Below are positions 2,644 to 27,138 of a stretch of DNA of 64,000 nt, piece after piece. The notes beneath the pieces were generated by a model. The model did not search any database and was not told the DNA's origin. It saw only the letters and a list, made by a program, of their open reading frames with translations. The position numbers and the translations under genes were made by a program. This DNA comes from Leptolyngbya sp. SIO1E4 (GTDB lineage Bacteria; Cyanobacteriota; Cyanobacteriia; Phormidesmidales; Phormidesmidaceae): NCBI GenBank assembly GCA_010672825.2, contig JAAHFU020000001.1, forward strand, positions 1,178,001 to 1,242,000, in the 5' to 3' direction. Each line of letters starts with the position of its first letter. The first letter of the stretch is position 1.

Positions 2644-3321
2644 ATGCGTATCCTCTTAGTCGAAGATGACCCTCAGCTCGGCGAAGGCTTAACCGAAGCC
2701 CTGACGGATGAAGGCTACATCGTAGATTGGGTCACAGACGGTGAGATGGGCTGGATTCAAGCAACTGATTTAGAGTATGACTTGATGGTGCTGGATGTCA
2801 TGTTGCCCAAGATGAATGGCATTCACCTCTGTCGGCGGTTGCGAGATACGGGCAAACGGGTTCCGATTTTAATGCTCACAGCTCGCGATACCAATACCGA
2901 TAAAGTCGCCGGACTCGATGCCGGGGCCGATGATTATGTGGTTAAACCCTTTGACTTATTAGAGCTGCTAGCGCGATTACGGGCACTGCTGCGGCGCAGC
3001 ACCCTGGGAGAAACCAGCACGATATTGACTTGGGAGCGTCTTCAACTCGATCCGGCAACCCATGAGGTTTTTTATCATCACACTCCCTTGAGGTTAACGC
3101 CTAAGGAGTTTAGCCTTTTGGAACTGTTCCTGCGCAGTCGGCGGCGCGTTTTAAGTCGATCTGTGTTGATGGATCAGTGTTGGTCTATGGATGCTTTGCC
3201 CGATGAAGAGACGGTCAAGTCTCATCTCAAAAGCCTGCGGCAAAAGTTACGGAAGGCGGGTGCCCCTGCAGATCTGATTGAAACGGTGCATGGGGTCGGC
3301 TATCGGCTCAAACACCCTTAG
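2644..3321 (+). CDS. OmpR/PhoB-family response regulator
   Basis: A 225-residue protein with an N-terminal receiver domain (about 1-115) and a C-terminal winged-helix DNA-binding domain (about 128-223). The receiver keeps the acidic pocket (EDD at 7-9), phospho-acceptor Asp51 in VLDVMLP, and the conserved Lys101 in VVKPFD. The effector domain shows the family signature LTPKEFSLLELFLRS and ends in VHGVGYRL. It is divergently transcribed from the histidine kinase and is very likely its partner, binding near promoters as a phosphorylated dimer. It resembles the RppA/NrsR-type cyanobacterial regulators only at family level, so no symbol is assigned. Confidence 0.92.
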   Translation: MRILLVEDDPQLGEGLTEALTDEGYIVDWVTDGEMGWIQATDLEYDLMVLDVMLPKMNGIHLCRRLRDTGKRVPILMLTARDTNTDKVAGLDAGADDYVVKPFDLLELLARLRALLRRSTLGETSTILTWERLQLDPATHEVFYHHTPLRLTPKEFSLLELFLRSRRRVLSRSVLMDQCWSMDALPDEETVKSHLKSLRQKLRKAGAPADLIETVHGVGYRLKHP

Positions 3322-19839: not shown

Positions 19840-20006
19840 CCGGGTGAACTGATCCGCGCAAACGCGGTAACCTTTACACAGCAATGCTTTTAAGAGATTG
19901 TGTTCGCTGTTTTTAAGATTCAAATGCAGTTTAGGGGCTGTAAATTCTGGGGTTCGCGCATCGCTATCCTGAAGCTGGCTCTATTAAACTGTTCCAAGCC
20001 ACTGCC
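19840..20006 (+). promoter_or_regulatory. Probable CRISPR leader
   Basis: The A/T-rich sequence directly upstream of the first repeat contains T runs (GCTTTTAAGAGATTG, CTGTTTTTAAGATTC) and no gene. The degenerate repeat is at the other end of the array, which places the leader here and transcription rightward. The exact leader limits are not visible. The whole gap 19463-20006 otherwise holds only the atp terminator and a possible relic. Confidence 0.55.
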
Positions 20007-21131
20007 GTCGCAATCAACCAATTCCCCGCAAGGGGATTGAAACTGCCGTCAGCCCTTCGATTAGTTCCTTGAGCTTTGTCGCAATCAACCAATTCCCCGC
20101 AAGGGGATTGAAACGTTCCGCACGCCCTCAGTCGCGTAATCGATAGTCTTGCGTCGCAATCAACCAATTCCCCGCAAGGGGATTGAAACCTGTTTGGGCT
20201 GCTTCAAGAGAATTGGTGTAGCGAGGTCGCAATCAACCAATTCCCCGCAAGGGGATTGAAACCTCTCGATCCTTGCCTCTAATTGAGACACATCAGGTCG
20301 CAATCAACCAATTCCCCGCAAGGGGATTGAAACGTGTTTACGCCGACAGGGACTTGGGAGCCACCGATGTCGCAATCAACCAATTCCCCGCAAGGGGATT
20401 GAAACAGATAATTACCCAGTAGCGATCGCCGATGATGACGTCGCAATCAACCAATTCCCCGCAAGGGGATTGAAACTAGCCCTGCATCGGCAGCCGCCTG
20501 CTCAAGACTATAAGGTCGCAATCAACCAATTCCCCGCAAGGGGATTGAAACAGCCCTGGGGGGAAGGAGTCCAAGGCGGTGCTAAGGGTCGCAATCAACC
20601 AATTCCCCGCAAGGGGATTGAAACGTATACCACTGATTCCATAAATTACCCGTGTCAATGGGGTCGCAATCAACCAATTCCCCGCAAGGGGATTGAAACA
20701 GGAACTATTAGGGCGTATGCCCTTTAGCATCGTCGTCGCAATCAACCAATTCCCCGCAAGGGGATTGAAACTGCGTTCAGTGAGTGAATACTTCTTTAAA
20801 ACACCGTCGCAATCAACCAATTCCCCGCAAGGGGATTGAAACACTGAGCCGTTTACAAGCCCGCCAATGGTCTTGTTGTCGCAATCAACCAATTCCCCGC
20901 AAGGGGATTGAAACTCTGGAGAAAGGTTGATGCGCTGAAAGACTGGCTCGTCGCAATCAACCAATTCCCCGCAAGGGGATTGAAACAGGTCGGCACTGTC
21001 AACCACGTAAAGTGGCATACCGTCGCAATCAACCAATTCCCCGCAAGGGGATTGAAACACCATTGAATCAGTACGTGCTGATTCAATTCTTGCCGCTGTA
21101 ACCAACCAATTCCCCGCAAGGGCAGTGAAAC
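20007..21131 (+). CRISPR. CRISPR array, 16 repeats and 15 spacers, no cas genes nearby
   Basis: Fifteen identical 37-bp repeats start at 20007, 20078, 20153, 20226, 20297, 20369, 20440, 20515, 20588, 20663, 20735, 20806, 20878, 20950 and 21022. A degenerate sixteenth is at 21095-21131. Repeats begin GTCGCAATCAACC and end GGGGATTGAAAC, with a TCCCC-GCAA-GGGGA hairpin whose loop is a GNRA tetraloop. Spacers are 34-38 bp and all different. The ATTGAAAC 3' end gives a standard 8-nt crRNA handle, as in type I and III systems. No cas gene lies within the window on either side, so the effector must be encoded elsewhere. The last repeat differs at both ends, marking the old, trailer end. Confidence 0.98.
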
Positions 21132-24063: not shown

Positions 24064-24519
24064 CTAATCGTCGTAAATACGCGCTTCTGGCGCATTGGGG
24101 TTTTCTTCGCAATACAGCTCAAAGCTGGTCTTGGGTTTTTCAACAAAGTCGCTTTTTTTCAGAATGTCGCTGATAGAAATCACGCCCAGCAGTCCCCCTT
24201 TGATGACTGGCGCCCGACGAATGCGCGTCTGAGCAAATAAGCGCGCCACATACTCAACCCCTAGTTCCGGGTTCACCACAATGCAGGGTTTAGTCATGAT
24301 TTCATAAACCCGCATTTGCTTAGGGTCATGGCCAAACGCAGCGACCTTATAGATAATGTCCGTTTCGGTTACCATCCCGTAGGGATCAGCCCCATAACGG
24401 GGTTCCACGATCAAGGCTCGCAAGCCTTTTTCTTTCATTAATTTGACCGCTTCCGCAATGGTGGCCGAGCCGCGAATCGTGACCACATCTTGGGTCATAA
24501 TATCTTCTGCTTTCATCAT
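24064..24519 (-). CDS. CBS-pair protein with remnant CP12 tail
   Basis: A 151-residue protein with two CBS motifs (about 1-62 and 70-128), nearly identical to the first 130 residues of the neighbouring CBS-CP12 protein. CBS pairs bind adenine nucleotides or SAM. After FVEKPK the sequence jumps straight to a short tail, FELYCEENPNAPEARIYDD, which is recognisably the CP12 C-terminus but has lost about 50 residues including the N-terminal cysteine pair and the AWDAVEEL motif, and has Ala where the last CP12 cysteine normally sits. It is therefore a decayed tandem duplicate, or a nucleotide sensor that no longer forms CP12 disulfides. It may form mixed oligomers with its neighbour. It lies 94 bp downstream of that gene. 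Confidence 0.85.
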   Translation of the reverse strand: MMKAEDIMTQDVVTIRGSATIAEAVKLMKEKGLRALIVEPRYGADPYGMVTETDIIYKVAAFGHDPKQMRVYEIMTKPCIVVNPELGVEYVARLFAQTRIRRAPVIKGGLLGVISISDILKKSDFVEKPKTSFELYCEENPNAPEARIYDD

Positions 24520-24557
24520 GGGATTTTGCCCTCCTCATAAAGTCTCAAACAAGCGAT

Positions 24558-24613
24558 TTAATCTTCATAAATTCGGCATTCTTCAGCGTCAGGATGCTCT
24601 TCGCAGTAGGTTT
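24558..24613 (-). other. Out-of-frame C-terminal end of the CP12 domain
   Basis: In the -1 frame relative to the upstream CBS-CP12 gene the sequence continues DKASLETYCEEHPDAEECR and ends IYED followed by TAA at 24560-24558. This is the canonical CP12 C-terminus with its second cysteine pair (Cys190/Cys199 in the combined protein) and the acidic tail that enters the GAPDH active site. Conservation of this unread segment argues that it is still made. Confidence 0.8.
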
Positions 24614-25171
24614 CTAGAGAGGCTTTATCCTTTTTTTTTTACGCTGATCTGCCGCCACCATTTGCAGTTCTTCAACCGCATCCCAAGCGGCTGCACAAGC
24701 CGGTGAGGTATCCCCTTGCTCCTTACAAATAGCGCGGGCTTCTTCACGGGCCACTTCAATGCGATCTTCGATGAAAAGCTGTTTGGGCTTTTCAACAAAG
24801 TCACTCTTGCGCAGAATATCGCTGATGGAGATCACGCCGAGGAGGCTGCCTTTAATCACAGGCGCACGCCGAATTCGAGTCTGAGCAAATAACCGAGCGA
24901 CGTATTCAACCCCTAATTCTGGATTGACCACCACACAGGGTTTGGTCATAATTTCATAGACCCGCATGGCCTTAGGATCATGGCCAAAGGCTGCAACCTT
25001 ATAGATAATGTCGGTCTCACTAACAATTCCATAGGGGTCTGCTTCATAGCGGGGCTCGACAATGAGTGCCCGCAGCCCCTTTTCCTTCATCAATTTCACG
25101 GCCTCTGCAACCGTGGCAGAACCGCGAATGGTGACCACATCTTGGGTCATAATGTCTGCTGCTTTCATCAT
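24614..25171 (-). CDS. CBS-CP12 fusion protein, zero-frame product truncated at a poly(A) run
   Basis: The zero frame encodes 185 residues: two CBS motifs (about 1-128) followed by a CP12 domain (about 133 onward) with the cysteine pair Cys149/Cys159 and the CP12 signature AWDAVEELQ. CP12 is the redox-controlled linker that holds GAPDH and phosphoribulokinase in an inactive complex; CBS-CP12 fusions are known from cyanobacteria. The coding strand then has a run of ten A (24631-24640) after GCGT, and the zero frame ends RIKPL-stop. Reading in the -1 frame from this run gives the missing CP12 end (see 24558-24613), total 204 residues. Whether this is slippage, programmed frameshifting, a mutation or a sequencing error cannot be told from one sequence. 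Confidence 0.88.
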   Translation of the reverse strand: MMKAADIMTQDVVTIRGSATVAEAVKLMKEKGLRALIVEPRYEADPYGIVSETDIIYKVAAFGHDPKAMRVYEIMTKPCVVVNPELGVEYVARLFAQTRIRRAPVIKGSLLGVISISDILRKSDFVEKPKQLFIEDRIEVAREEARAICKEQGDTSPACAAAWDAVEELQMVAADQRKKKRIKPL

Positions 25172-25721: not shown

Positions 25722-26045
25722 TTACAGCAGCCGGTCTACTTCACCGCTGAAAGATTCATAGGGCTTCACCCCAATCAGGGTTTCCATTAACTCACCGGCT
25801 TTAAAGAACATGACCGCTGGGATGCTGGTAATGCCAAAGCGTTTAGCAATGGTTTTATTCGAATCGAGATCTAACTTAAAAACCTTGGCGCGATCGCCAT
25901 ATTCATCCGCTAATTGATCCATCAAAGGTGCAACCATTTTGCAGGGGCCGCACCAAGTTGCCGTACAGTCCACCACTAATACGGCTTCATTAGCAAGCAG
26001 CGAATCAAACTCAGTTTCATCTTGAATATAGGTCGCCGTACCCAT
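25722..26045 (-). CDS. Thioredoxin
   Basis: A 107-residue single-domain thioredoxin with the active site WCGPC at residues 31-35 and the cis-proline in TSIPAVMFF. An additional cysteine, Cys27 in DCTATWCGPC, lies just before the active site and could allow a regulatory disulfide. It lies 30 bp downstream of a ferredoxin gene and upstream of the zinc-ribbon and CBS-CP12 genes, all on the minus strand. Thioredoxins reduce CP12 disulfides, so its position next to a CP12 fusion gene is suggestive. It may be m- or x/y-type; the exact class was not determined. Confidence 0.93.
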   Translation of the reverse strand: MGTATYIQDETEFDSLLANEAVLVVDCTATWCGPCKMVAPLMDQLADEYGDRAKVFKLDLDSNKTIAKRFGITSIPAVMFFKAGELMETLIGVKPYESFSGEVDRLL

Positions 26046-26075: not shown

Positions 26076-26372
26076 TTAGTACAAATTTTCTTCTTGATGC
26101 GTCTGAATCGTGCAGTCAGAGAGCGGGTAGGCGACACAGGTCAGCACAAACCCAGCATCTAGCTGATCACCATCTAAAAACGCTTGCTCCGACTGATCCA
26201 CTTTGCCAGAAATCAGCTTACCTGCACAGGTCGAACAGGAGCCTGAACGACAGGAAATCGGTAAATCAATATCCTGCTCTTCTGCCGCCTCAAAAATGTA
26301 CTGATCTTCTGGAACCTCTAGCGTGACATCTAGTCCATCATCATTAATCAGCTTTACGGTGTAAGTTGCCAT
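26076..26372 (-). CDS. [2Fe-2S] plant-type ferredoxin
   Basis: A 98-residue ferredoxin beginning [20 protein letters not shown]. The cluster ligands Cys41, Cys46, Cys49 and Cys79 are in CRSGSCSTC and [11 protein letters not shown]. Ser replaces the more usual Ala in CRAGACSTC, found in some alternative ferredoxins, so it may not be the main photosynthetic PetF. The frame extends seven codons upstream, but ATG 26372 matches the family start. It is followed after 30 bp by thioredoxin, so the two are probably cotranscribed. Confidence 0.93.
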
Positions 26373-26565
26373 AAATCTATCTCTCAAACTCAATGACTGA
26401 AGGTGATTTCTAAGGAAGAAAATACCGATTGCCTTAGGGCAGATTTGGCTAGAAGCGAGTGCCCATCATCGAGCAAAGCGTTCAAACCCTGCTAGCACCG
26501 GTAATTTGTTGCCTGCCCTAAACGATTGGCCCATTTCTGCCGACTGCAGCGTCAGCGCCTGACAC

Positions 26566-27138
26566 CTAAGCCAGTACGCTGTGCTGGTTTTGCAGGAGTG
26601 ATTCTTGCAGGGTATTGGCGACCTCATCCAACGCGTAATTGCCATTAATCGCTGTGAGGCAATTCCGTCGCTGGTAAAAGTCAATCAAGGGCGCGGTATC
26701 TTCTCGATAAACTTCCAAGCGTCGGCGAATGGTTTCTTCGGTATCATCTAGCCGCCCTCTGGCCAGCATCCGCTCAACTAAATGTTCAGGGGTGACCTCA
26801 AAATAAACCACCGTCGGGTGGGGGTGTCGAACGATCTCTAATAACTCGTCTAAGGCCTGGGCCTGGGAAAGGGTGCGCGGAAACCCGTCTAAAATCCAGC
26901 CTGACTTCATATCTGGCGCGCTAAAGCGCTCACGCATCAGAGCCATGACTAAAATATCGGGCACTAACTCCCCAGCTTCTACATGGGTGCGCGCCTGGAT
27001 CCCAAGGGAGGTTTTGCCTGCGATCTCCTGCCGTAAAATATCCCCCGTAGAAATGTGAGGAATATGCCAGCGCTCTGCGAGAATGCTGGCCTGAGTCCCT
27101 TTACCAGCACCAGGGGGGCCTAAGAAAATAAACTGCAT
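26566..27138 (-). CDS. adk: Adenylate kinase
   Basis: A 190-residue enzyme catalysing 2 ADP to ATP plus AMP. The P-loop GPPGAGKGT is at residues 7-15, the AMP-binding segment ISTGDILR follows, and DGFPRTLSQAQALD is the family signature. The LID is the short form, without zinc cysteines, as is usual for cyanobacteria. It is the most upstream minus-strand gene of a run that includes ferredoxin, thioredoxin and the two CBS proteins; the CBS domains of the latter are likely to sense the adenylates this enzyme balances. The 193-bp gap to ferredoxin suggests a separate promoter there. Confidence 0.95.
   Translation of the reverse strand: MQFIFLGPPGAGKGTQASILAERWHIPHISTGDILRQEIAGKTSLGIQARTHVEAGELVPDILVMALMRERFSAPDMKSGWILDGFPRTLSQAQALDELLEIVRHPHPTVVYFEVTPEHLVERMLARGRLDDTEETIRRRLEVYREDTAPLIDFYQRRNCLTAINGNYALDEVANTLQESLLQNQHSVLA

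What the first reader, a model, noticed from the sequence alone, without database searches (positions are those of the whole stretch)
24558..25171. CBS-CP12 fusion gene with an A10 run exactly where the CP12 domain changes frame
Seen: the zero frame reads into CP12 (Cys149, Cys159, AWDAVEELQ) and stops shortly after ten consecutive A on the coding strand. The -1 frame beyond the run encodes an intact canonical CP12 tail with two further cysteines and RIYED. Known: long A runs cause transcriptional slippage and -1 ribosomal frameshifting, and are prone to length mutation. CP12 tails bind GAPDH. Inference: the locus may produce two proteins, with and without the GAPDH-binding tail, or switch by run length. 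The conserved unread tail argues against long-standing decay.
Basis: partly seen in the sequence, partly recalled or inferred. Interest (0 to 1): 0.82.

Follow-up and report, generated by a model that had tools for sequence, protein, structure and literature searches.

The report
Recent frame break in CBS-CP12 gene
A cyanobacterial carbon-metabolism regulator gene has its last 23 codons pushed out of frame at a run of ten A's; comparison with about 90 relatives suggests a recent, leaky loss of a dispensable tail (or an uncounted eleventh A), not an evolved two-protein switch.

Summary
On the minus strand, 25171-24614 encodes a 185-aa CBS-CP12 protein. Its frame leaves CP12 at a ten-A run (24640-24631), and the -1 frame beyond encodes an intact CP12 tail, DKASLETYCEEHPDAEECRIYED* (24629-24558). 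Eleven A would give 204 aa, the commonest length in relatives.

The switch interpretation is only partly supported. The nearest relatives all have the tail in one continuous frame and no long run. A-runs in this Lys-rich linker occur no more often than codon usage predicts (5 against 4.2). No downstream RNA stem is seen. CBS-CP12 proteins are reported not to form the GAPDH/PRK complex, so the tail need not bind GAPDH.

A 'no-tail' CBS-CP12 is a known natural form. On a tree of 89 genes, presence or absence of the tail changes at least 7-9 times, all in one clade. That clade typically carries an adjacent gene with only the CP12 C-half (24519-24064 here) and often an upstream thioredoxin gene.

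Most likely this is a recent one-base loss in a tolerant context. A minor full-length product by transcriptional slippage on A10 is plausible. An undercounted A11 in the assembly cannot be excluded (about 25%).

The parts
24614..25171 (-). Zero-frame CBS-CP12 ORF, 185 aa (N-type product: CBS pair plus CP12 N-half, no tail)
   Evidence: 78-88% identical to the matched part of the closest relatives
24806..25171 (-). CBS-domain pair (residues 1-122)
   Evidence: Pfam PF00571, 94 bits; solved relative 5nmu/5npl/5nvd CBS-CP12, E 1e-91
24641..24772 (-). CP12 N-half with Cys149, Cys159 and AWDAVEELQ (residues 134-177)
   Evidence: Pfam PF02672; residue numbers
24631..24640 (-). Run of ten A; frame-junction site (zero frame AAA AAA AAA AGG)
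24558..24629 (-). CP12 tail in the -1 frame: DKASLETYCEEHPDAEECRIYED*, intact and under recent purifying selection
24064..24519 (-). Tandem paralogue, 151 aa: CBS pair plus only the C-terminal part of CP12 (SFELYCEENPNAPEARIYDD)
   Evidence: (CP12 profile positions 47-70 only)
25722..26045 (-). Thioredoxin gene (WCGPC) upstream on the same strand; this linkage is conserved in the clade
   Evidence: linkage in 35/48 clade-B and 0/37 clade-A loci

Best explanation
This is an N/C-type CBS-CP12 gene that recently lost one A from a Lys-codon run (11 to 10), so its main product is now a 185-aa CBS-CP12 without the CP12 tail. That is the same architecture as the natural 'CP12-N-CBS' form that has arisen repeatedly in this clade. 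The loss is tolerated because the CBS-CP12 tail is not essential: its cysteines are lost in near relatives, CBS-CP12 is not reported to act through GAPDH, and a tandem paralogue still carries a CP12 C-half. Because A10 is a slippery template, a minority of full-length 204-aa protein probably still leaks out, by RNA polymerase adding one A and less likely by a ribosomal -1 slip on A-AAA-AAA. This leak would be unselected. Shown: frame break, intact tail, recent purifying selection, recurrent tail loss, tandem C-half partner, no conserved run. Inferred: that A10 is the true genomic length, the direction of the indel, and the leaky product.
For: The five nearest kin on the tree are full-length, and the window gene is the only broken member of that starred 6-row clade. 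The tail has pN/pS 0.09 against L009 and at most 3 window-branch replacements, which bounds relaxed time to roughly <15% of the branch. Eleven A give exactly 204 aa, the commonest length of relatives. On the 89-gene tree the tail state changes 9 times (at least 7 on starred branches): 27 of 51 clade-B genes are tail-less against 0 of 38 in clade A. In near kin L010 and L011/L022 the tail survives but both its cysteines are gone. L023 keeps a frame-shifted remnant IYDD*. Linker A-runs occur at chance. Assembly frames at long runs are otherwise good: 20/20 single-gene A8 sites and 4 of 5 A9 sites intact, the one A8 'frame change' being a gene overlap. Precedent for leak: PMC4256274; E. coli RNAP slips on runs of at least 8 A by insertion (PMC6260861).
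Against: No second genome of the same genus is held and no reads are available, so true run length and its fixation are untested. A second candidate -1 junction at an A9 in the same genome (L152, TIR | NB-ARC) fits either real slippage sites or base undercalling at runs of 9 or more. The tail shows no decay at all, which fits an assembly error or a still-translated tail at least as well as a fixed loss.
Confidence: 0.55

Rival explanations
1. Assembly or sequencing artefact: the real genome has 11 A and an ordinary continuous 204-aa CBS-CP12 gene; the consensus dropped one A.
For: 11 A gives the commonest length of relatives (204 aa) and a tail with no sign of decay. The assembly is long contigs (12 for 8.2 Mb), typical of long reads, whose errors concentrate in long homopolymers. 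The one other doubtful junction at a long A run (L152, A9) would also be repaired by one extra A.
Against: No excess of frame changes at homopolymers of 5-9 (5 of 1208 against 33 of 6599 at random positions); 20/20 single-gene A8 and 4/5 A9 sites intact. Run counts fall off smoothly (about 126 A8, 13 A9, 2 A10), and A10 is about as rare in related genomes, so there is no sign of systematic truncation. Only one run of this length is coding, so power at A10-A11 is nil.
Confidence: 0.25
2. Programmed dual output: the A10 run is kept by selection so that a fixed fraction of transcripts (plus one A) yields full-length CBS-CP12 beside the tail-less form, as in Citrobacter rodentium tssM1.
For: The precedent is mechanistically the same (A11, two length variants, 20-25%, both needed; PMC4256274). 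Both lengths exist as natural proteins in relatives. A10 is one of the two longest A/T runs of the genome. In several full-length relatives with linker A-runs (L013, L015, L017, L028) one extra A would give the short form at once.
Against: The run is absent in the nearest relatives. Linker runs are no commoner than codon usage predicts (5 against 4.2). Two Mastigocoleus sister genes differ in having the run or not (L017, L018). Immediate stops in the plus-one-A frame are also frequent in genes without runs (23/52 within 6 codons). No stimulatory stem (z +1.2).
Confidence: 0.12
3. Phase variation: replication slippage changes the run between 10 and 11 A, switching the tail off and on among cells.
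For: A10 tracts are expected to be mutable, and both states encode plausible proteins.
Against: No population data; no conserved run in relatives. The gene is an intracellular metabolic regulator, not a surface or modification gene in which phase variation is usual (general knowledge).
Confidence: 0.05

Closest known systems
CBS-CP12 proteins of N/C and N classes (CP12-N/C-CBS and CP12-N-CBS, Stanley et al. 2013 as reported in PMC3906501; CBS-CP12 structures 5NMU/5NPL/5NVD)
   Same: CBS pair fused to CP12 with N Cys pair and AWD_VEEL; sequence match to 5nmu E 1e-91; the 185-aa product matches the N class and the 204-aa reading the N/C class.
   Different: Here a single gene sits between the two classes: the N/C tail is intact but out of frame behind A10.
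Citrobacter rodentium tssM1 / Yersinia pseudotuberculosis tssM3 poly-A transcriptional slippage (PMC4256274)
   Same: Long A run in a coding region, stop shortly after, intact C-terminal part reached by adding one A.
   Different: There slippage and both products were shown by experiment; here none is shown. The run is 10, not 11, and the lost part is about 23 residues.
Non-programmed transcriptional frameshifting on A/T homopolymers (PMC6260861, PMC1088944)
   Same: An A run of at least 9 in a disrupted gene where slippage would restore the frame.
   Different: Measured in E. coli or predicted in other bacteria; slippage by cyanobacterial RNA polymerase was not measured in any paper read here.

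Membership tests
CBS-CP12 (CP12-N-CBS class) | N-terminal CBS-domain pair | tested here: met
   Pfam CBS 94.4 bits, two stretches
CBS-CP12 (CP12-N-CBS class) | CP12 N-terminal Cys pair and AWD_VEEL core | tested here: met
   Cys149, Cys159, AWDAVEEL at 162
CBS-CP12 (CP12-N-CBS class) | No C-terminal Cys pair in the zero-frame product | tested here: met
   Zero frame ends KKKRIKPL*
CBS-CP12 (CP12-N/C-CBS class) | C-terminal Cys pair and tail in the same reading frame | tested here: not met
   Tail with two Cys present only in the -1 frame
Programmed transcriptional slippage gene (tssM1-like) | A run of at least 9 at the exact frame junction, frame restored by one extra A | tested here: met
   A10 at 24640-24631; 11 A gives 204 aa
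Programmed transcriptional slippage gene (tssM1-like) | Run conserved or enriched in relatives beyond codon usage | tested here: not met
   Absent in nearest kin; 5 observed against 4.2 expected
Programmed transcriptional slippage gene (tssM1-like) | Heterogeneous mRNA and two proteins | not testable with these tools
   No reads, cDNA or proteomics held
Programmed -1 ribosomal frameshifting (dnaX-like) | Slippery heptamer in the zero frame | tested here: met
   A AAA AAA in the zero frame at 24640-24631
Programmed -1 ribosomal frameshifting (dnaX-like) | Downstream stimulatory stem or pseudoknot | tested here: not met
   Downstream 91 nt fold weaker than shuffles, z +1.21; pseudoknots not modelled
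GAPDH-binding CP12 | Binds GAPDH through the tail and forms the GAPDH/CP12/PRK complex | not testable with these tools
   [quoted passage not shown])

The most novel reading that the evidence does not exclude
The A10 run is a working transcriptional-slippage switch that makes tail-less and full-length CBS-CP12 from one gene, next to a paralogue that carries only the CP12 C-half, so that the cell tunes a split CP12 system by slippage.
Probability: 0.1. Interest if true: 0.6.

Novelty: new member of a known kind. Interest (0 to 1): 0.34.

Why it matters
If the A10 is real, this gene catches in the act the step by which a full CBS-CP12 becomes the tail-less form, a change that has occurred repeatedly in one clade. 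The wider pattern may matter more than the run: tandem CBS-CP12 genes, one keeping or losing the tail and the other having only the tail, usually beside a thioredoxin gene. It suggests a division of the CP12 halves between two CBS subunits that could be tested directly. If the run were a true switch, it would be a case of transcriptional slippage acting on a Calvin-cycle regulator.

Tried and rejected
Ribosomal frameshift signal: no downstream structure. Selection for A-runs in the linker: expected 4.2, observed 5, rejected. Immediate stop in the plus-one-A frame as a shared design: median distance to stop is short in run genes, but it is also within 6 codons in 23/52 control genes, and the run genes are mostly one clade, so not pursued. 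Correlation of tail loss with an adjacent C-half gene by independent pairs: no signal; several tail-less genomes (Dolichospermum, Rivularia) have no C-half gene in the held assembly, so the C-half gene is not a strict requirement. General homopolymer errors in the assembly: no excess at runs of 8 or fewer; the L244 'frame change' is a nadD/NUDIX gene overlap. Same species in viral contigs: none. Primary papers Stanley 2013 and Hackenberg 2018 are not held, so reviews were used.

Full report
What is there. On the minus strand, 25171-24614 encodes 185 aa: two CBS domains (Pfam 94 bits) followed by the N-terminal half of CP12 with Cys149, Cys159 and AWDAVEELQ. The frame reaches ten A (24640-24631), reads KKKRIKPL and stops. 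In the -1 frame the DNA continues without interruption as DKASLETYCEEHPDAEECRIYED* to 24558, a canonical CP12 tail with two cysteines. One thing it missed lies 38 bases downstream: 24519-24064 encodes a second CBS protein of 151 aa, about 92-93% identical in the CBS part, that carries only the end of CP12 (SFELYCEENPNAPEARIYDD; CP12 profile positions 47-70).

Is the run unusual? The window has one A10 against 0.28 expected by shuffling. In the 8.22-Mb genome only two A/T runs reach 10 and none is longer. Most related genomes also hold very few, so such runs are generally avoided. However, the linker between the CP12 halves is rich in Lys. Redrawing codons from each locus's own usage predicts 4.2 of 86 genes with a linker run of at least 8 A; 5 are seen (L013, L015, L017, L028 and the window). 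The site therefore makes long A runs by composition, without selection for them.

Is the tail alive? Compared with the nearest relative L009, the -1 tail has 13 synonymous differences (saturated) and 5 non-synonymous (pN/pS 0.09), against 0.10 for the upstream part. By inspection at most about three replacements fall on the window's own branch. With synonymous distance near 1.8, a neutral tail would have collected about 51 over the whole branch, so the tail can have been unconstrained for no more than about 15% of that branch (rough, Jukes-Cantor). Long-standing decay is excluded. A recent break, a still-translated tail, or an error in the assembly remain.

Relatives. The closest relatives (L009, L010, L011/L022, L092; 80-88% identical) have one continuous frame of 202-204 aa and no long run; L009 has 7 A in frame. 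With 11 A the window gene would be exactly 204 aa, the commonest length; with 8 A, 203. No other genome of the genus is held. A tree of 89 genes, built without the tail, has two large clades. Clade A (38 genes) always has the tail. Clade B (51 genes) has 27 tail-less genes, and tail state changes 9 times on the best tree, at least 7 of them forced by well-supported branches; the window gene is one of these, inside a supported set of six whose other five are full-length. The tail-less form is thus a recurrent natural state, corresponding to the published CP12-N-CBS class (PMC3906501). Even where the tail persists it is relaxed: in L010 and L011/L022 both tail cysteines are gone, and L023 keeps only IYDD in another frame. 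Clade B also typically has the tandem C-half gene. Across 29 pairs the CBS halves of the two genes often group by organism rather than by gene type, which suggests gene conversion or repeated duplication.

Assembly error. Reads are not available. In 581 kb of the same genome, homopolymers of 5-9 show no excess of frame changes (5 of 1208 against 33 of 6599 random positions). Over a larger set of sites, 20 of 20 single-gene A/T8 runs and 4 of 5 A/T9 runs in coding DNA keep the frame; one apparent break is a normal nadD/NUDIX overlap. The exception, L152, is an A9 between a TIR-domain ORF and an NB-ARC/TPR ORF in the -1 frame, a pair that lies in one frame in at least one relative genome (G054). 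Run-length counts decline smoothly (about 126, 13, 2). So the assembly is generally sound, but nothing here tests a true A11 read as A10, and I keep 25% for that.

Mechanism. Experiments elsewhere show that A10-A11 can act as a slippery template: in Citrobacter rodentium tssM1 an A11 gives 20-25% of product in the restoring frame by added A, and both proteins are needed (PMC4256274). E. coli RNA polymerase inserts on runs of at least 8 A (PMC6260861). By the same chemistry one extra A here would give the 204-aa protein. No downstream stem was found (z +1.2), so transcriptional rather than ribosomal slippage is the likelier leak. Calling it programmed needs conservation, which fails: no run in the nearest kin, and no enrichment.

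Function of the tail. The GAPDH inference does not transfer directly. [quoted passage not shown]). The window's genome also has a separate canonical four-cysteine CP12 (L163 2741-2965). Losing the tail of this protein should therefore not remove GAPDH control.

Context. A thioredoxin gene (25722-26045), a ferredoxin (26076-26393) and adenylate kinase (26566-27138) lie just upstream on the same strand (names by inspection of their motifs). The thioredoxin link is a clade-B feature: 35 of 48 loci with enough upstream sequence, against 0 of 37 in clade A. This was not followed to function.

Verdict. A real and accurately described frame break at an A run in a CBS-CP12 gene; most likely a recent, probably leaky, loss of a dispensable tail, with an undercounted A as the main rival. 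As a switch it is unproven and unlikely.

Noticed in passing
window 24064-24519; L009-L061 (29 pairs): Tandem CBS-CP12 pair: one gene full-length or tail-less, the neighbour carrying only the CP12 C-half with a single or no cysteine. It does not fit the three CBS classes named in PMC3906501 (N/C-CBS, N-CBS, 0-CBS).
   Followed up: partly
window 25722-26045 and loci of clade B: A thioredoxin gene lies within 2 kb upstream, same strand, of clade-B CBS-CP12 genes in 35/48 loci, and in 0/37 clade-A loci; adenylate kinase is also nearby in several.
   Followed up: partly
window 24064-25171; pairs: CBS halves of the tandem paralogues group by organism rather than by gene type (14 label changes), suggesting gene conversion or repeated duplication while the tails stay distinct.
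   Followed up: partly
L152 3205-3213 (G000:C2:1704204-1704212): Another -1 frame junction at an A9 run: a CHAT-like/TIR ORF of 379 aa stops just after the run and an NB-ARC/TPR ORF of 1233 aa continues in the -1 frame; a version in one frame exists in genome G054.
   Followed up: partly
L023 (around 3000-3080): Tail-less CBS-CP12 gene with a frame-shifted remnant (IYDD*) of the CP12 tail, an independent, older loss.
   Followed up: no
G000 whole genome: A/T runs of 10 are almost absent (2 in 8.22 Mb, none of 11); most runs of 9 lie outside genes.
   Followed up: partly
window about 19960-21105: CRISPR-like direct repeats: the peptides FQSPCGELVDCD / FNPLAGNWLIAT recur in several frames.
   Followed up: no
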